A stretch of 64,000 nt of DNA. It comes from Polyangiaceae bacterium. Lineage in GTDB: Bacteria > Myxococcota_A > Polyangia > Polyangiales > Polyangiaceae. Numbering within the stretch: position 1 is the stretch's first letter; each line of letters begins with the position of its first letter. Position numbers and translations under genes: made by a program. Positions 38,562 to 50,442 of the stretch are shown piece after piece. Location: NCBI GenBank assembly GCA_019637295.1, contig JAHBVX010000014.1:90006-154005 (forward strand), written 5' to 3'. The notes beneath the pieces were generated by a model that was not told the origin of the DNA, did not search any database, and saw nothing but the letters and a program-made list of their open reading frames with translations.

Positions 38562-39575
38562 TCAGAGCGAGTCCGGCGGCGGAGACGGCGCGGGGATGCA
38601 GGTCTCGGCGGTGGCCACGACGTTGTAGGCGCTGGTGACCGGGTACGAGTAGCCGAACAGCATGCACATCTCGTTGTCCCCGATGCCCTCGACGATGGTC
38701 TTGTTGAAGGTGTTCTTCCAGGTGCAGCCGAAGCGAAACCCGTTGCCCTGCGACAGATCCACCGCGGGATCGTAGCTGTAGATGTCGCTCGCCTCGGTGA
38801 AGCCCTGCTTGTCGAGGAAGGCCTGGCCGTCGCGGGCTCCGCCGAGATACTCGACGTGGAACCGCTCGCCCAAGGCGTGCATGTGCGGCATCGCGTCCAC
38901 GATCTTCATGGGCTGGGGCAGCCAACACTCCGACTCGACGGTCAGCTTGCTGAGCGGCGGGATCTCGAAGCCGCGGATGAGCCAGATGAAGGGCGCGATC
39001 TCCTGGCTCACGTCCGCCTCGGGGATGGTGTACCAGCGATACTTGGGGGCTATCTTGAGCGGCTGGCTGCCGGCGTTCAGGTAGTGCATGCGCGCGACGA
39101 TCTCGTAGCCGTCCTTGACGCGGAACGCCTGACCGTCCGGGAAGCGGCGCCACTCGGTGCCGACCATCTGCGTGGACGAGCCAAACAGCACCGCGCCACC
39201 CGCGAGCACGTCCCCCGCCTCGCCGCCGAGCAGCCCCGCGTCGCCAGGCTCGCACGGACGCACGCCCTCACCCGTCTTGGGGCGCGAGGTCAGGTTGCCG
39301 TGATGCAGCCCCGCCGTAGTGGTCAGGCTGGCCGCCGCCACGAACCGACTCGGCCCCTCGAGCTCGAGCGGGAAGACGTAGCACGGCGTGATCTCTTCGT
39401 TCGGCTCCAACGTGAGCTCGGGTACGTCGATGGCGAAGCCGCCCACGGCGTTCGGCGGCGCGCCCTGCTGGGGCGGCTTGCCCTGTGGACCCGGTGTGTT
39501 GGGCTCGGAGCCGTCATCGCCGCCGCAACCTGCCAGCAGCACCATCACCCACGCCAACGTCCACTTGCGCTCCAT
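38562..39575 (-). CDS. Lipoprotein resembling copper type II ascorbate-dependent monooxygenase (PHM/DBM fold)
   Basis: A 337-residue protein from the ATG at 39575, preceded by GGAGGAAG. The signal MERKWTLAWVMVLLAGC makes it a lipoprotein. Candidate copper ligands fall in the PHM/DBM order: His91-His92 (GLHHGN) and His164 (ARMHYLN) for one copper, and His231 and His233 (PHMHALG) plus Met303 in NEMCMLFGYSYP for the other. The last motif matches the D/N-E-M-C segment of the eukaryotic enzymes. Such enzymes hydroxylate C-H bonds with copper and ascorbate. Several bacterial relatives exist without known substrates. An inverted repeat in its promoter suggests regulation. Confidence 0.82.
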   Translation of the reverse strand: MERKWTLAWVMVLLAGCGGDDGSEPNTPGPQGKPPQQGAPPNAVGGFAIDVPELTLEPNEEITPCYVFPLELEGPSRFVAAASLTTTAGLHHGNLTSRPKTGEGVRPCEPGDAGLLGGEAGDVLAGGAVLFGSSTQMVGTEWRRFPDGQAFRVKDGYEIVARMHYLNAGSQPLKIAPKYRWYTIPEADVSQEIAPFIWLIRGFEIPPLSKLTVESECWLPQPMKIVDAMPHMHALGERFHVEYLGGARDGQAFLDKQGFTEASDIYSYDPAVDLSQGNGFRFGCTWKNTFNKTIVEGIGDNEMCMLFGYSYPVTSAYNVVATAETCIPAPSPPPDSL

Positions 39576-39648
39576 CACTGCTTCCTCCAGCTCGCGTCCC
39601 GCACCGCCTGAGCATGTCACGCGGCGGCGGGGACTGCCGCATGCTGTA

Positions 39649-39668
39649 CATTCTGTTTTTCCAGAATG
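39649..39668 (-). promoter_or_regulatory. Inverted repeat in the promoter region of the copper monooxygenase-like gene
   Basis: CATTCTG (39649-39655) and CAGAATG (39662-39668) are perfect 7-bp arms separated by six bases. The site lies 74-93 bases upstream of the start, between a weak -35 (TTGCAT) and -10 (TACAGC) spaced by 17 bases. An operator is likely. The alternative is a short hairpin with a T-run for rightward transcripts, but nothing is transcribed rightwards here. Confidence 0.45.
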
Positions 39669-39678
39669 CAAGGCGCAC

Positions 39679-39718
39679 AAAAAAATCCAAGGCGACCCGG
39701 TCGCCCGGGTCGCCTTGG
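39679..39718 (-). terminator. Strong intrinsic terminator ending the leftward RNA unit
   Basis: Read leftwards, CCAAGGCGACCCGG (39718-39705) and CCGGGTCGCCTTGG (39700-39687) form a perfect 14-bp stem capped by GCGA (39704-39701), a GNRA tetraloop. An A and seven consecutive T (39685-39679) follow. No protein gene precedes it on this strand for 2 kb, so it must end a non-coding transcript. It is the clearest intrinsic terminator in the window. Confidence 0.93.
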
Positions 39719-39734
39719 AGGAAGGTCACATTTT

Positions 39735-39825
39735 GCCGATGGTGGGCGTCTGCCCCGACATTTCTGCCTCGCATTCATCGGCCTCCCGCGAGCGCGCTTG
39801 CAAGCGTGCTCGGGGCATCATCGCC
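39735..39825 (-). other. 3' domain of the RNA: two-part stem with a possible pseudoknot
   Basis: Leftward reading: GGCG (39825-39822) pairs with CGCC (39748-39745). After an internal loop, TGCCCCGA (39817-39810) pairs with TCGGGGCA (39758-39751), eight perfect pairs. Inside the enclosed loop GCCGATG (39782-39776) is complementary to CATCGGC (39741-39735), which lies outside the stem, so the two can form an H-type pseudoknot. The terminator follows 16 bases later. Confidence 0.55.
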
Positions 39826-39844
39826 TCAATGTGGGCTCTACCTA

Positions 39845-39877
39845 TCGGACCCGCCAATTCGCGTTGGCTTGATCCGA
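39845..39877 (-). other. Nested hairpin in the RNA with a strand-specific G-U pair
   Basis: TCGGATC (39877-39871) pairs with GGTCCGA (39851-39845) including one U-G pair, and directly inside GCCAA (39868-39864) pairs with TTGGC (39857-39853) around CGCGAA. On the opposite strand the U-G becomes an A-C mismatch, so the leftward transcript is the better folder. Confidence 0.55.
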
Positions 39878-40238
39878 GGTGAGGGGCAGAGTCGTTAGCT
39901 CGTGCCCGCTTTGGCGAAGAGCGTCGGCGATGTACCTCACCTTCGATTTCTCGAAGGGGTACGGACTTCCCGCGTGACTTACACTGGAGAAGCCTTGACC
40001 GCCTGAGCGCCCAGCCTCTGGGAACCGCTGTCGCTTTCCGGGCACCACCAGTGGCTCTTCAGACAACCACTGCCAGCTGGCTCGCACGACCCGAGTGGCT
40101 TTCGCCACCGCGCCGCACGTCGCATTCACCCGGTCAGCCAGGGCTGCTGCAAAGCCAAACGGATTAAGAATGACCTTACCAACACAACCCCGGATCCCTC
40201 GAATCGTGTCCACGAGTCCCATGAAGGCAAGCTTCACG

Positions 40239-40360
40239 GGCCGATGCTCGTGGTTCGTTAGTCACAAACCAAACGAACACCGCGCACCCGTTCGCCCGAC
40301 TCGCATCGCGACAGCTCGTCAAAGCTGCCTCGACCACCATCGAGCTAGACCGCATCGGCC
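40239..40360 (-). other. Multibranch domain of the RNA closed by a 9-bp long-range stem
   Basis: GGCCGATGC (40360-40352) and GCATCGGCC (40247-40239) are perfectly complementary over nine bases and enclose 104 bases. Inside are CTCGA/TCGAG (40344-40340 with 40333-40329), CAGCT/AGCTG (40327-40323 with 40316-40312) and GTTCGTT/AACGAAC (40278-40272 with 40259-40253). This looks like a four-way or five-way junction. Confidence 0.55.
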
Positions 40361-40808
40361 TCCACCTTGCGGCGAAGAACCCATCCGGCCAAAGATACGT
40401 CTGACCGATTCGTGCAACCCACATGTCAAAGACAAGCACCCGTATCCATGCGTAACAACCCGCCCCGAACGGGGTGGATGAGTGCTCTGACTCCACGGAG
40501 GGAGCACCCGCTTCGGTCGGCAACCGTGACCATTTTTCCTCTTCCGGTGCAGCTTGCCTGTTCGGCACGCCGCAGACCCGGCACCAAGAGGGCCGACCTC
40601 TGACGCCTCCGTCATCGCCCGCACCAGCCCAGCGAGTTTCCCCGGCAAGGCTCGTAGCGGACGACCAAGCTCGCTCGCTCGACCGACTCCGTGAAGCCGA
40701 CCGCGCACTGCGAACCAAGGCGCCTTTCATCGACGAGGAGACCTTCTTCGGCCTCTTTGCGAGTCAGAGGTGAGAACTCACGTTCCCTGCTCGCGCTCGG
40801 TCGTCTGT

Positions 40809-40837
40809 TCGTCTTCCCGGTGTTTCCACCAAGACGA
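40809..40837 (-). other. GAAA-capped hairpin in the RNA
   Basis: TCGTCTT (40837-40831) pairs with AAGACGA (40815-40809), and stacked inside it GGTG (40830-40827) pairs with CACC (40822-40819) around a GAAA tetraloop, leaving GGG bulged on one side. GAAA loops of this type often dock into receptors in large RNAs. Directly upstream, GATCC/GGATC (40875-40871 with 40845-40841) and CGTCCG/CGGACG (40891-40886 with 40882-40877) form further stems. Confidence 0.55.
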
Positions 40838-40980
40838 CTAGATCCTGCCGCTCCCCCTAGCCGCAACCAGGGATCACGTCCGGACCGGACGCCGCTCGTC
40901 AACTTCTGCTGTCAAACGCATCGATCGGGCACACCAACGAACTACGTTTCCCCACGCACCACCTGCTTTCGCACATGATG

Positions 40981-41039
40981 CTGCCGCTCGGCGCGAACGC
41001 CGAGGACCGTGGGCAGTCTGGCACCGGAGTTACCTCCAG
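40981..41039 (-). other. Two adjacent tetraloop hairpins in the RNA (GTAA and TTCG)
   Basis: CTGGAG (41039-41034) pairs with CTCCGG (41029-41024), with one U-G pair, around GTAA. Next, CTGCC/GGCAG (41016-41012 with 40985-40981) encloses a perfect 7-bp stem CTCGGCG/CGCCGAG (41004-40998 with 40993-40987) around TTCG. Confidence 0.55.
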
Positions 41040-41093
41040 CTGGCCCCCGAAGGGCCGGCCAAACCGGCCGGAAGCAGCCGAGCTAGCGTGGCG

Positions 41094-41152
41094 TGCTGCG
41101 ACGCGCAGAGGCCAACTCGTTCCGCTCCCGAACACCTCTGCGTCGCGAAGCA
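41094..41152 (-). other. Long bulged stem of the RNA
   Basis: GCGAC (41146-41142) pairs with GTCGC (41102-41098), and after a two-base bulge GCAGAGG (41141-41135) pairs with CCTCTGC (41111-41105), giving 12 perfect pairs. TGC/GCA (41152-41150 with 41096-41094) can extend it. The enclosed 23 bases hold GTTC/GAAC. This is the longest internal helix after the terminator. Confidence 0.6.
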
Positions 41153-41761
41153 TCTGCCGGTCCGGGGCTGAAGATTCTTCATCCGGCGGCCAGAATGCTC
41201 GCCAAGGCCCCTTCACGTCACCGTCCGCGCGAACGGAGCAGGCGGGTAAAGGGGTCGAGGTGTCTGCAAACTCCCGGGAGTTCCACTCGAGCGCAAGCTC
41301 TGTGGAACCGGAACCGCCACTTGTTCCCCACCTGCGCTCACGCGCTTCGGTTTCACACTGGGTGGGGGGGTCGGCTCACGCGCCTTTTGTCGCACGGCTC
41401 GCTGGGGGGTATTGGACGTACCCGGGTGCCCCTTTTCAGGGAGCGGGCCTCGCCCAGCGAATTCCGGCGGTGGCGCTACCGGACCAGCGGAGAGGCTTGC
41501 GACCTCTTCGATCTGACCGGCGCTCCACGGCGCCCCAAGGGTTGTCAACGAACCGTTCGCTCGGTGGCAGATGTGCCGCGAACTTCCGAGGAGTGTTATG
41601 CCTCCATCCCGCCAGTCGTCGCAACACAAAACGCCTTTCGATTGGGATTTTGTTATCCACAGGCTATCCCCAGGAAAGGGGCGGCGCCCCCGAGGCGACC
41701 GCCTCTGACCGCGAGAATCGGCATTTTTGCGGGGAATTGTCCAAGAAAGGCGGCCAGCGGC

Positions 41762-41850
41762 GAGGGCGCCGTGCCCTAATAGTCGTTTGTTTATGTCATG
41801 TGTTTTAGTCCATTGTATTTGCGTTGAATCTACCATTGTAAGACGCAAGT
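41762..41850 (-). promoter_or_regulatory. AT-rich segment, likely promoter region of the large RNA
   Basis: This is the AT-richest part of the gap before the divergent gene at 41992. Read leftwards it contains two TACAATGG copies (starting near 41840 and 41816), each with a -10-like TACAAT. No convincing -35 element is visible at the right spacing. The double motif could be a repressor or activator site. An alternative start is TTGCGA with an 18-base spacer and CATAAC near 41623-41594. Confidence 0.35.
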
Positions 41851-41948
41851 GACAGCCGTCACGACGCGACCGCCCAGGGACGCAGAGCGCCGTCCCCGCG
41901 TCTCGCCAGCAGGAGGCTCGCGCGGCTTCGCGCGGCGGCAGGCTTTGT

Positions 41949-41981
41949 GTTCTGCGCAGAACCTGAGTAGACCGAGGTCTG
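41949..41981 (+). promoter_or_regulatory. Two palindromes upstream of the small coiled-coil gene
   Basis: GTTCTGCGCAGAAC (41949-41962) is a perfect 14-bp palindrome, and AGACCGAGGTCT (about 41969-41980) has 5-bp arms around GA. Both lie 10-45 bases before the GTG at 41992. They may be operator sites; no regulator can be named. A GGGAG ribosome site follows the second. Confidence 0.4.
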
Positions 41982-41991
41982 GGAGTAAGCC

Positions 41992-42201
41992 GTGCCTCTG
42001 GATTCCAACGCCCTGAAGACCGAGCGTGACAAGCTCAAGGAGGGCCTGCGTCAGCTCGAAGCCGAGCAGCGCAGGCTCGAGACCGATCTCAAGACGCTAC
42101 GCCAGCGGGAGATCCAAACCAAGCGGGAGATCGAAGCGCTCTCCACGCTGATCGAGATCCACGACACGAAGGACCCGGCCGCCGCCAAGCGCGACGAGTG
42201 A
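41992..42201 (+). CDS. Small coiled-coil protein, 69 residues
   Basis: Starts at GTG after GGGAG. Residues 8-55 are a continuous charged heptad pattern (LKTERDKLKEGLRQLEAEQ, RLETDLKTLRQREIQTK), clearly a coiled coil. There is no signal or membrane segment. Such small proteins often dimerise and act as adaptors. It is the first gene divergent from the large RNA, so a protein partner for that RNA is conceivable, but nothing beyond position supports this. It is convergent with the MscS gene. Confidence 0.75.
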   Translation: MPLDSNALKTERDKLKEGLRQLEAEQRRLETDLKTLRQREIQTKREIEALSTLIEIHDTKDPAAAKRDE

Positions 42202-42224: not shown

Positions 42225-43550
42225 TCAGCCGTCGTCGCCCGCGCTCTGGGCCGCTGGCGTCAGCGAGGCCAAGTAGCCGTGGGTGAGCTTGGGGCCACGC
42301 GGGCGGGAGAGTCCCCCTCCCGGGGCGAAGTCGGCGACGACCCGTGCCAGCTCTTCGGTGGCGCGACGCTCGCTCGCCGTCTGCGCGGTCGGCTCGAGGT
42401 GCAGGGTACGCGTGGGGAAGGCAAACGCGACGCCGAGTTCGCGTGCGAGGCGCATGATCTCCAGGAAGACGTTGTGTCTCTCGCGCAGCTCGTCCGACCA
42501 GGACGGCACCTCGAAGAAGAAGTAGAGCATGACGTCGAGCGAGTGCGCGCCGAAGCCCGACATGTGCACCTCGTAGTAGTCCTTCCGGGTGGAGGGATTA
42601 GCCTGCAGGATCGCCCGCACACCCTCCACGAAGGCCTGCATTTGCTCGGGAGTGGTGTCGTAGGTCAGGTTCAGCGTGACAAACACCCGTCGGTACTGGC
42701 GCGCTCCGAAGTTGTCGATCTTGGTCTCCGTGAAGCGGGCGTTCGGCAGCGTGACCAGCGAGTTCTGGAACGTGCGAATGCGGGTGGAGCGAAACCCCAC
42801 TTCTTCGACGATGCCTTCCACGCCATCGACCACGATCCAGTCGCCGATCTGAAACGGGCGGTCGACGAAGATCATGATGCTGCCGAAGAAGTTCGCGATG
42901 GTGTCCTTGGCAGCCAATGCCACCGCGAGCCCGCCTATGCCGAGGCCCGCCAGCAGCGAGCCGACGTTGACGTTCAGGTTCTGCAGAATGAACAGCGCGC
43001 CAGCCACGACGACGAAGGCCTTCAGCGAGCGACGCACCAGCGGGACCAGCTGGTCATCCAGCTTCGAGTCCGTAGTCTCTGCCTTGGCGGCGAGGCGGTC
43101 GGCGAGCACCTCGACGAAGCGGTAGGTGGCCCACACCAGCGACACGACGACCAGCACGCGCACCGCGACCTCGAGGGCGCCGACCATGCCCTCGGCCAGC
43201 CCGAGCTTCGGGTAGCCAATCCGCAGCACGACGGCCATGATCAGCGTCGCTAGCGGCGCCGAGGCCGCTTCCACCAGACGAGCCAGCCACTCGCGCTCGG
43301 TGAGCTCCACCAGCGCCGTGATGCGGCGCTTCAGCAGGTAGAGCGCGACCCGACGCAACACGAGCCCCAGGATCAGCAGCAGGAATATCGCGAGGTACTG
43401 CCAGACCTCGACGTCGAGCACGCTGCCCCGCAGCGCCTGGGGCATGTTCCGAGCGAGCCACGCGGGCGGCTCGGGCTCGGCGGTGGCGACGCTCGGCAAC
43501 AGCAAGCACGAGAGCGCCGCCAGCAATGAAAGCCGGAATTTCGCAGACAC
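42225..43550 (-). CDS. MscS-family mechanosensitive channel
   Basis: A 441-residue channel. The start is taken at the GTG at 43550 because GGAGG lies eight bases before it; the in-frame GTG at 43559 overlaps that site. A signal peptide (LLLPSVATA) is followed by about five membrane helices. The pore helix and beta domain are canonical: NVNVGSLLAGLGIGGLAVAL, NFFGSIMIFVDRPFQIGDWI and VVDGVEGIVEEVGFRSTRI. It opens under membrane tension to release solutes during osmotic downshock. It is the last gene of the leftward run that begins at 47392. Confidence 0.92.
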   Translation of the reverse strand: MSAKFRLSLLAALSCLLLPSVATAEPEPPAWLARNMPQALRGSVLDVEVWQYLAIFLLLILGLVLRRVALYLLKRRITALVELTEREWLARLVEAASAPLATLIMAVVLRIGYPKLGLAEGMVGALEVAVRVLVVVSLVWATYRFVEVLADRLAAKAETTDSKLDDQLVPLVRRSLKAFVVVAGALFILQNLNVNVGSLLAGLGIGGLAVALAAKDTIANFFGSIMIFVDRPFQIGDWIVVDGVEGIVEEVGFRSTRIRTFQNSLVTLPNARFTETKIDNFGARQYRRVFVTLNLTYDTTPEQMQAFVEGVRAILQANPSTRKDYYEVHMSGFGAHSLDVMLYFFFEVPSWSDELRERHNVFLEIMRLARELGVAFAFPTRTLHLEPTAQTASERRATEELARVVADFAPGGGLSRPRGPKLTHGYLASLTPAAQSAGDDG

Positions 43551-43600
43551 GATTCTCACCTCCTTCGAGCACAGTGAAGACTCGGACCCACGAGCGCGGG

Positions 43601-49536: not shown

Positions 49537-50442
49537 TCAACGAACACGGCGCACCGTCGCCTCGAAGCGTCTACCCGAGCCCAGCACGAAGTACGCACGC
49601 CCCGGCGCCGTCGCCTTGGGGGGCTCGAAGCCGAGGGTGTGGGCTTGGTTCGGATCCTCTGCCTCCGCGGAGGGCGCCTCGTCGAACAGTTGCACGCTGA
49701 CGCTCAGAGTCTCTTGTCCCGCGCCCAGCCCACTCGCGAGCGCGAAGCGACCCGCGCGCAACAAGAGCAGCGTGCGGGTCACGAGGTTCGACAGGGGGCC
49801 GGTGAGCGGCATCGGCTCCACCTCCGTGGACGAAATCCGGCCGTCGGCGTCGAGCTCCACCCGGATGGTGACCTCGCCTTGGGTGCCCGCGGGCAGGCCG
49901 CGCCAAATCGGGTCCTTGTGGGTGGCCGCAGTTATGGCGCGAGTGAAGGCCTTGCCCAGCTGACGCACTCCGGCGGGCAGCTCACTCTCGGCTCCGCCCA
50001 GCGCGGGCCGTGCCGGCCCGGGGGCGGACTCGCTGCCCGCCTCGCCCGACGCCGGCGCGGCGGCGTGCGCCGCCGGCGCGACGGGGCGCCGCCGCCTTGG
50101 ACGCGGCGCTGGCTTCGCGTCCGGCTCGGAGGGGGCCTCTGCCGCCCGAGGCGCGGGCCTTGGGGCGGGCTGCGTGAGGGCACTTGGAGCCGCCGGAGAG
50201 GAGGGCTCGGTCGCGCTCGGCTCCGCGGGTCCGGGCGCCGAGAGCGCGGGGTCGACGGCGGCGAGCGCGGCTGGCCCGGCCGCCGGCAGGGCCTCGATAT
50301 CGACCGTGTTGCCGTGCCAAACGTCCGGCACGAGCTCAGGCTCCGGCGGAGCGGCTTGCGCCCGGGAGAGCAGCAGCGCGCCCACTGCGGCCGCGTGCAG
50401 GCCCAGCGAAGCGAGCACGGACAGCGGGGCGCGGACGCTCAC
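49537..50442 (-). CDS. TonB-like energy transducer or periplasmic linker protein
   Basis: A 301-residue protein from the GTG at 50442 (frame open to 50547). One N-terminal membrane helix (PLSVLASLGLHAAAVGALLL) anchors it in the inner membrane, followed by a Pro/Ala/Glu-rich periplasmic spacer of about 115 residues with an Arg-rich patch, as in TonB. The C-terminal domain, GEVTIRVELDADGRISSTEV and onwards, has the TonB/TolA C-terminal pattern. No exbB or exbD is adjacent. A TonB-family role is likely but the receptor is unknown. Confidence 0.72.
   Translation of the reverse strand: MSVRAPLSVLASLGLHAAAVGALLLSRAQAAPPEPELVPDVWHGNTVDIEALPAAGPAALAAVDPALSAPGPAEPSATEPSSPAAPSALTQPAPRPAPRAAEAPSEPDAKPAPRPRRRRPVAPAAHAAAPASGEAGSESAPGPARPALGGAESELPAGVRQLGKAFTRAITAATHKDPIWRGLPAGTQGEVTIRVELDADGRISSTEVEPMPLTGPLSNLVTRTLLLLRAGRFALASGLGAGQETLSVSVQLFDEAPSAEAEDPNQAHTLGFEPPKATAPGRAYFVLGSGRRFEATVRRVR

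What the first reader, a model, noticed from the sequence alone, without database searches (positions are those of the whole stretch)
39679..41720. Possible undescribed giant structured RNA of about 2 kb
About 2 kb without a credible gene, with composition unlike the flanks. It ends leftwards in a perfect 14-bp GCGA-capped terminator with seven T, so something non-coding is transcribed. Leftward reading gives many helices with GNRA or UUCG caps, a 12-bp bulged stem, a 9-bp long-range stem and a pseudoknot option. If one molecule, it would be much larger than OLE, ROOL or GOLLD (about 0.6-0.8 kb). Single 5-bp hairpins are expected by chance in 2 kb; the long stems and the clustered tetraloops are what matter.
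Basis: partly seen in the sequence, partly recalled or inferred. Interest (0 to 1): 0.93.

Follow-up and report, generated by a model that had tools for sequence, protein, structure and literature searches.

The report
Giant structured RNA with DnaA-box promoter
A bacterial genome, likely myxobacterial, carries a stretch of about 1,900 letters, found in about a third of the searched genomes of its order, whose partner letters have changed together so as to keep a large RNA fold; it matches no family in the RNA library searched, is predicted to be transcribed as a single RNA, and would likely be switched by the replication starter DnaA, whose binding motif sits at its predicted promoter.

Summary
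Window 41588-39679 (minus strand, about 1.9 kb) is non-coding and conserved from end to end in relatives. A model of its 5' end hits 61 of 183 genomes of the order, once per genome in 60 of the 61. An independent model of its 3' end hits 38 of 183; 36 of its 40 matches lie on the same strand, 0.8-3.7 kb downstream of a 5' match. The consensus fold of 35 members has 238 pairs; 24 covary strongly, against 0-1 in 16 phylogeny-keeping nulls, with supported helices spanning up to 589 nt and a pseudoknot. Coding is rejected, Rfam is silent, and neighbouring genes differ between relatives. The predicted promoter carries a DnaA box (TTATCCACA, at most one mismatch) in 37 of 38 loci chosen by the 3' model, against 17 of 3666 control windows. 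Best reading: a stand-alone gene for a new class of giant structured RNA, likely controlled by DnaA. Transcription, DnaA binding and the RNA's job are untested.

The parts
39679..41588 (-). giant structured non-coding RNA, about 1.9 kb, predicted single transcript
   Evidence: collinear homologues, covarying fold, not coding; start inferred from the promoter, end from the terminator
41653..41661 (-). TGTGGATAA = DnaA box TTATCCACA read on the other strand
   Evidence: sequence; conserved; one of only 3 in the 7.65-Mb genome
41619..41624 (-). predicted -35 element TTGCGA
   Evidence: TTG at this place in 39-40 of 40 aligned promoters; function inferred
41595..41600 (-). predicted -10 element CATAAC, 18-nt spacer to the -35
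   Evidence: GCATAA is the column consensus but exact in only 14 of 40; function inferred
41559..41586 (-). conserved RNA 5' box GAAGTTCGCGG..ACATC with a 5' hairpin
   Evidence: GAAGTTCGCGG exact in 25 of 40 (alignment); hairpin 41583-41576/41566-41559 pairs well but shows little covariation
41131..41264 (-). 5' domain closed by 41264-41257/41138-41131, with an inner hairpin 41237-41233/41228-41224
   Evidence: 28 pairs, 26 with changes on both sides in 23 sequences; 0/500 shuffles reach any of the five measures
40436..40932 (-). long-range helix 40932-40924 with 40444-40436 (span 496 nt) enclosing the central domain
   Evidence: paired 0.86 against at most 0.53 when slid; 4 of 9 pairs with double changes
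40602..40724 (-). helix 40724-40717/40609-40602 and stacked 40716-40710/40674-40668
   Evidence: paired 0.96 and 0.87, 14 of 15 pairs with double changes
40494..40693 (-). pseudoknot 40693-40690 with 40497-40494 (loop-loop type)
   Evidence: paired 0.94, slid maximum 0.60, 3 of 4 pairs with double changes, not in the nested fold
39832..40421 (-). long-range helix 40421-40416 with 39837-39832 (span 589 nt) enclosing the 3' domain
   Evidence: paired 0.89, 6 of 6 pairs with double changes
40202..40410 (-). helix 40410-40403/40210-40202 and inner 40399-40393/40289-40283
   Evidence: 8 of 8 and 5 of 7 pairs with double changes
40020..40198 (-). helix 40198-40191/40027-40020 (span 178 nt across a hypervariable stretch)
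   Evidence: 7 of 8 pairs with double changes in 29 sequences, 91.6% of cells paired against 29.8-46.7% slid
39679..39719 (-). intrinsic terminator, GNRA-capped 15-bp hairpin and T run
   Evidence: 15 of 15 pairs with double changes

Best explanation
The stretch is non-coding DNA whose sequence has kept a large RNA fold of about 1.9 kb in relatives of the same order; it is predicted to be transcribed leftward as one RNA, from a predicted promoter bearing a conserved DnaA-box motif to the intrinsic terminator, likely under control of the replication initiator DnaA, and the product would likely work as a folded RNA rather than as a message or leader. Shown: conservation end to end, covarying long-range helices and a pseudoknot, no coding signature, a conserved terminator, a conserved DnaA-box 9-mer about 75 nt upstream of the RNA start, a single copy in nearly every genome with a match, and no constant neighbour gene. 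Inferred: transcription as one molecule; DnaA binding, probably as an upstream activator, given boxes mostly at about -75 and -87; an RNA-only or RNA-protein particle made in step with growth or the replication cycle.
For: A homologue at 74% identity over query 87-2081 and collinear pieces in others (alignments). 5' model: 61 of 183 genomes of the order at E<=1e-4, 31 of 83 genera. 3' model: 38 of 183 genomes, 40 matches, 36 on the same strand 0.8-3.7 kb downstream of a 5' match. Fold: -285 kcal/mol and 238 pairs with 24 strongly covarying, against -4 to -94.5 kcal/mol and 0-1 in 16 nulls; sense -285 against antisense -181. Compensatory pairs with slid and shuffled controls. Not coding. Neighbours vary; the downstream gene lies on either strand. 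DnaA box: 37 of 38 loci at <=1 mismatch against 17 of 3666 control windows; 38 of 47 boxes sit at -73 to -77 or -85 to -88; the motif also lies near the start of the dnaA frame in 6 of 6 loci that include upstream sequence and is rare in these genomes.
Against: No transcript data. One family member found through its 3' end, G125, keeps the promoter and the 5' box but has no DnaA box. In g20 and g68 genomes the 5' end is found but not the 3' model. 122 of 183 genomes of the order gave no 5' match at E<=1e-4, single-contig G032 among them. Lengths vary (0.8-3.7 kb; 35 of 41 between 1.67 and 2.44 kb). Over all 1.7 million column pairs only 2 pass E 0.05, and at middling scores the real alignment has fewer high pairs than the null (193 against 379 at score 20); the support comes from the pairs of the fold. 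16 of 40 nested helices have under 80% of cells paired, and the two 5' hairpins covary no more than slid versions. For the 178-nt helix two of five measures do not beat the shuffles.
Confidence: 0.72

Rival explanations
1. The structured RNA is real, but the upstream 9-mer is the site of another regulator, or a DnaA-titration site, so the RNA has no tie to replication.
For: No binding data; G125 lacks the box; E. coli datA-like titration loci exist (recalled).
Against: The 9-mer is the exact DnaA-box consensus (passage of PMC8203912), lies near dnaA in 6 of 6 loci, and 38 of 47 boxes sit at two fixed distances, about -75 and -87, from the RNA start.
Confidence: 0.2
2. Two or more separate RNAs lie in tandem, the first 450 nt being one and the rest another.
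For: The 5' domain is joined to the rest only by a weak 4-bp helix spanning 1570 nt; a few relatives have much shorter spacing between the two ends.
Against: One conserved predicted promoter and one conserved terminator; the scan of 39500-42000 lists no leftward terminator other than the final one; both ends stay together in 36 of 40 matches.
Confidence: 0.1
3. It is a 5' leader or riboswitch of the downstream copper-monooxygenase-like gene.
For: In the window that gene follows on the same strand.
Against: A strong terminator separates them; among 22 loci examined, the window included, the downstream gene is on the opposite strand in 10 (two of these without a located 3' end) and of many kinds; the most widespread flanking ORF cluster is in 12 of 45 loci, on both strands.
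Confidence: 0.03
4. It is conserved as DNA, for example a second replication origin beside the DnaA boxes.
For: DnaA boxes, sometimes two or three, upstream.
Against: dnaA lies 0.7-3 Mb away in the 5 of 9 genomes where both are on one contig, reckoning the single-contig genomes as circles; sampled GC skew does not change sign at the RNA in G143 (G155 was too noisy to tell); the sense/antisense difference of the fold points to RNA.
Confidence: 0.04
5. It is a decayed or unrecognised protein gene.
For: Long open frames occur, and stop-free frames are longer than in shuffles (median 273 against 197 aa).
Against: No codon periodicity, indels mostly out of frame, no Pfam hit in the ORFs tested.
Confidence: 0.01

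Closest known systems
GOLLD RNA (Rfam, large ornate RNA)
   Same: large, ornate, many helices and pseudoknots, function unknown
   Different: many GOLLD members exceed 800 nt and they are encoded in phages and prophages (PMC12286853, passage seen); this one is 1.9 kb, with neighbours that vary and no match to one pattern in viral contigs; no Rfam match
ROOL and OLE RNAs
   Same: large structured bacterial RNAs that form RNA-only complexes (PMC12286853, abstract start and passages)
   Different: no Rfam match; more than twice their size (recalled, about 0.6 kb)
Group II introns
   Same: large, multi-domain, long-range pairing
   Different: no Rfam match even at E<=10; own predicted promoter and terminator; single copy in 60 of 61 genomes
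CcnA ncRNA of Caulobacter
   Same: a non-coding RNA tied to cell-cycle control (start of abstract of PMC8959179)
   Different: no sequence relation was tested; recalled as a small RNA near oriC, whereas this is giant and far from dnaA

Membership tests
GOLLD / ROOL / OLE (large ornate RNAs) | match to the Rfam covariance models | tested here: not met
   Searches (E<=10 on 39500-42000; 15 relatives, gathering threshold): no match
GOLLD / ROOL / OLE (large ornate RNAs) | homo-oligomeric RNA complex | not testable with these tools
   needs cryo-EM or native gels
GOLLD / ROOL | carried by phages or prophages | tested here: inconclusive
   one exact pattern gave no viral contig, but that pattern does not match the window either; flanking ORFs were not searched for phage genes
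Group II intron | match to the Rfam intron model | tested here: not met
   no intron model at E<=10
tmRNA | tRNA-like end and tag peptide | tested here: not met
   ARAGORN finds only one tRNA-Pro at 50067-50139 in the window
cis-acting leader or riboswitch | constant downstream gene on the same strand | tested here: not met
DnaA-regulated gene | DnaA box in the promoter region | tested here: met
   37 of 38 loci at <=1 mismatch, control 17 of 3666 windows; exact in the window
DnaA-regulated gene | DnaA binds and changes transcription | not testable with these tools
   needs ChIP and promoter mutants

The most novel reading that the evidence does not exclude
A DnaA-driven, cell-cycle-timed RNA machine: one of the largest structured non-coding RNA classes of bacteria outside the ribosome, made when the initiator DnaA is active, that feeds back on chromosome replication or growth in Polyangiales.
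Probability: 0.35. Interest if true: 0.98.

Novelty: categorically new. Interest (0 to 1): 0.93.

Why it matters
Few very large structured bacterial RNAs are known, and recent structures of GOLLD, ROOL and OLE showed unforeseen RNA-only complexes (PMC12286853). This one is more than twice the 800 nt quoted there for GOLLD, and its compensatory changes support helices across hundreds of nucleotides. It is single-copy, stand-alone and found in 31 of 83 genera searched. Its promoter motif gives a direct lead on function: a testable tie to the replication initiator.

Tried and rejected
Protein gene, leader/riboswitch, second origin, known RNA family: see rivals. Distribution beyond the order: the 5' model over 377 genomes of the phylum gave no convincing match outside the order (best outside E 6.8e-5, partial, 24.5 bits; strict filters, so weak matches can be lost). 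Named-genome pattern scan: 19 hits. Eight are confirmed by the 5' model at 65.9 bits or more, all in records titled Myxococcales, Polyangiaceae or Labilithrix. The other 11 score at most 23.8 bits with it (5 listed, E 3.5e-6 to 0.03) and have no 3' match at E<=0.1; I take them as chance. Of the 8, 5 have a 3' match; for the other 3 the fetched stretch ends before or about where it would lie. GC-skew sampling of G155 was too noisy to use. G106's 5' match is probably false. No structure prediction of a protein and no protein-database search was made. The generic promoter scan does not list the predicted promoter. My scripts print window coordinates 2 too high, and asks for regions in those numbers; coordinates in this report are corrected.

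A bias to state: the 5' models R1 and R3 include the promoter, so loci found with them favour promoters like it. The fair test is, on loci chosen by the 3' model. Three of the six seed loci (G036, G043, G028) were found by inner or 3' parts alone, and all six seeds have a box with at most one mismatch.

Rows dropped: the covariation alignment used 35 of 46 loci (those with no 3' end, an odd length, or no clear start left out) and 1872 of 4630 columns (under 45% gaps). The two domain alignments used 29 and 23 of the 35 (near-duplicates and members with long inserts left out). Searches used 45 of 46 loci. One search used 38 loci of 37 genomes and left out G004, whose 3' match lies on another contig than its 5' match; G140 is counted although its RNA is split between contigs. 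Of 16 further loci the 3' model matched 6; a box with at most one mismatch is printed for the 12 with a located start, and is visible in 2 of the other 4.

Literature: searches showed no description of this RNA in the rows listed (searches found no paper; two searches listed 15 of 22 and 15 of 114). They cover open-licence PMC papers only. I saw passages of PMC12286853 and PMC8203912 and starts of abstracts of others. Sizes of OLE and ROOL, datA, and the size and place of CcnA are recalled.

Full report
What was checked. The terminator is there: a 15-bp perfect stem with a GCGA loop and seven T. Rfam has no match to the window at the gathering threshold. On 39500-42000 the only three matches at E<=10 are weak and far below their families' cut-offs. 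Fifteen relatives have none at the gathering threshold.

Homologues. A DNA search of 59 genomes matched 6: the window's own and 5 relatives, with 74% identity over nearly the full length in the same genus, four collinear pieces in G014, and single short pieces in three others. Aligning them showed a shared 5' end (GAAGTTCGCGG), many short invariant patches and a shared 3' end with the terminator. Models were built from the 5' end (R1, later R3) and from the 3' end (R2). R1 hit 53 of 183 genomes of the order at E<=0.5. R3 hit 61 of 183 at E<=1e-4, in 31 of 83 genera, once per genome in all but one. R2, which shares no sequence with R3, hit 38 of 183 genomes at E<=0.01 with 40 matches; 36 of the 40 lie on the same strand 0.8-3.7 kb downstream of a 5' match. 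Of the four others, one is the palindromic terminator read on the other strand, one (G140) is the 3' half of an RNA split between contigs, one (G125) is a divergent member whose 5' end was then found, and one (G004) is unexplained.

Which organisms. Named relatives are records titled Labilithrix, Polyangiaceae and Myxococcales. Labilithrix belongs to the order Polyangiales in the NCBI taxonomy. A search of 377 genomes of the phylum gave nothing convincing outside the order.

It is not coding. Between the window and its nearest relative, substitutions fall evenly on the three codon positions (0.288, 0.261, 0.260) and 3 of 31 indels are multiples of three. The neighbouring copper-monooxygenase-like gene gives 0.217, 0.152, 0.458 and 2 of 2. 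None of seven other pairs shows a third-position excess like the control. Nine of 14 ORFs of the stretch, and the 69-aa ORF beside it, were tested and have no Pfam match. The longest stop-free frames are longer than in shuffled sequence (median 273 against 197 aa); I put this down to composition and conserved sequence, since the codon test is negative.

It is a structured RNA. On an alignment of 35 members the consensus fold has 238 pairs at -285 kcal/mol; 45 pairs have a covariation score of at least 15 and 24 of at least 20. Sixteen null alignments, evolved on the same tree with the same substitutions dealt to other columns (8 freely, 8 within rate classes), gave -4 to -94.5 kcal/mol, 0-2 pairs at 15 and 0-1 at 20. 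Because each null was folded anew, choosing the fold from the data is allowed for. The all-pairs view is less striking: only two of 1.7 million column pairs pass E 0.05, and at score 20 the real alignment has 193 pairs against 379 in the average null. The reverse strand folds worse (-181).

Two domains were aligned and counted again with separate tools, on 23 and 29 of the 35 members: 26 of 28 pairs and 7 of 8 pairs have changes on both sides. The structure stands far above slid versions (88.5% against at most 49.3% of cells paired; 91.6% against at most 46.7%). For the smaller domain, two of five measures are reached by some shuffles (35 and 102 of 500). The helix table has 40 nested helices of at least 3 bp: 24 have 80% or more of cells paired, 16 are less sure (65-79%). 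It includes helices spanning 496 and 589 nt, and a 4-bp pseudoknot at 40693-40690/40497-40494. The two hairpins at the 5' end pair well but covary no more than slid versions. The link of the first 450 nt to the rest is weak.

It stands alone. Flanking ORFs are shared only within subgroups; the most widespread cluster is in 12 of 45 loci, on both strands. Among 22 loci, the window included, the next gene downstream is on the same strand in 12 and on the opposite in 10 (genes chosen by a codon-composition rule, and two of the 10 lack a located 3' end). The kinds (for example FadL-like, YedK-like, aminopeptidase-like, DprA-like) are my reading of the sequences, not a database result.

Its promoter. 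Upstream of the RNA, TTG lies at the same place in 39-40 of 40 aligned members, and GCATAA is the column consensus about 18 nt further, exact in 14 of 40. The generic promoter scan does not list it, so it is a prediction from conservation. About 75 nt upstream of the RNA start lies TGTGGATAA, the DnaA box TTATCCACA on the other strand (consensus: passage of PMC8203912). Within -200 to -30, 31 of 45 loci have the exact box, 5.4 per kb against 0.008 per kb elsewhere in the same loci. Within -130 to -60 the best match has 0 mismatches in 29, 1 in 15 and 2 in 1 of 45 loci; a control stretch has 3-5 in all 45. In 38 loci chosen by the 3' model, which does not include the promoter, 27 have the exact box, 10 have one mismatch and one (G125) has none; 17 of 3666 control windows reach one mismatch.

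The motif is rare: 3 in the window's genome and 1-12 in 12 others, with at least one at the RNA promoter in 11 of those 12. One of the 3 lies just before dnaA. Six of six dnaA loci with upstream sequence have it at <=1 mismatch near the start of the frame (three loci at contig starts lack upstream sequence; background 0.024 per kb). The RNA is 0.7-3 Mb from dnaA in the 5 of 9 genomes where both lie on one contig, so it is not the usual origin; the sampled skew of G143 does not change sign there.

Reading. I take this as a stand-alone gene for a giant structured RNA, likely regulated by DnaA. The positions at about -75 and -87 suit an upstream activator, which is inference. What the RNA does is open. 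By analogy with OLE, GOLLD and ROOL, a large RNA-only or RNA-protein particle is my guess, and the promoter suggests it is made in step with growth or replication. It is not a member of those families: their Rfam models do not match.

Limits. There are no expression data. Genomes of g20 and g68 keep the 5' end without a 3' match. 122 of 183 genomes of the order have no match at the cut-off used, which may be loss or divergence. Lengths between the two ends range from 0.8 to 3.7 kb (35 of 41 between 1.67 and 2.44 kb), and the extremes may be mismatched ends.

Noticed in passing
G000 and 12 other genomes: The exact DnaA box is rare in these large genomes (1-12 copies). In 8 of the 12 it is below its reversed control, as if avoided; in 4 (G007, G028, G033, G099) it is above.
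   Followed up: partly
G021 contig 1: Eleven equal matches of a 334-aa frame with a DnaA-like ATPase domain scattered over the chromosome, probably an insertion-sequence helper ATPase (my guess).
   Followed up: no
window 41992-42201 and 42225-43559: A 69-aa coiled-coil ORF and an MscS-like gene upstream of the RNA; DNA similar to the 69-aa ORF is found upstream of the RNA in L011 and L012.
   Followed up: partly
L014 (G028): The RNA region is about 1 kb longer (2930 nt) than in the window, with GC-rich inserts and repeated motifs.
   Followed up: no
L079, L081: The 5' and 3' ends lie only 1.5 and 0.8 kb apart, perhaps a reduced core form of the RNA.
   Followed up: no
G131 C691 and C195: The only genome with two copies, each with both ends; the assembly is marked 8% contaminated.
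   Followed up: no
window 50067-50139: Single tRNA-Pro gene, ordinary.
   Followed up: no
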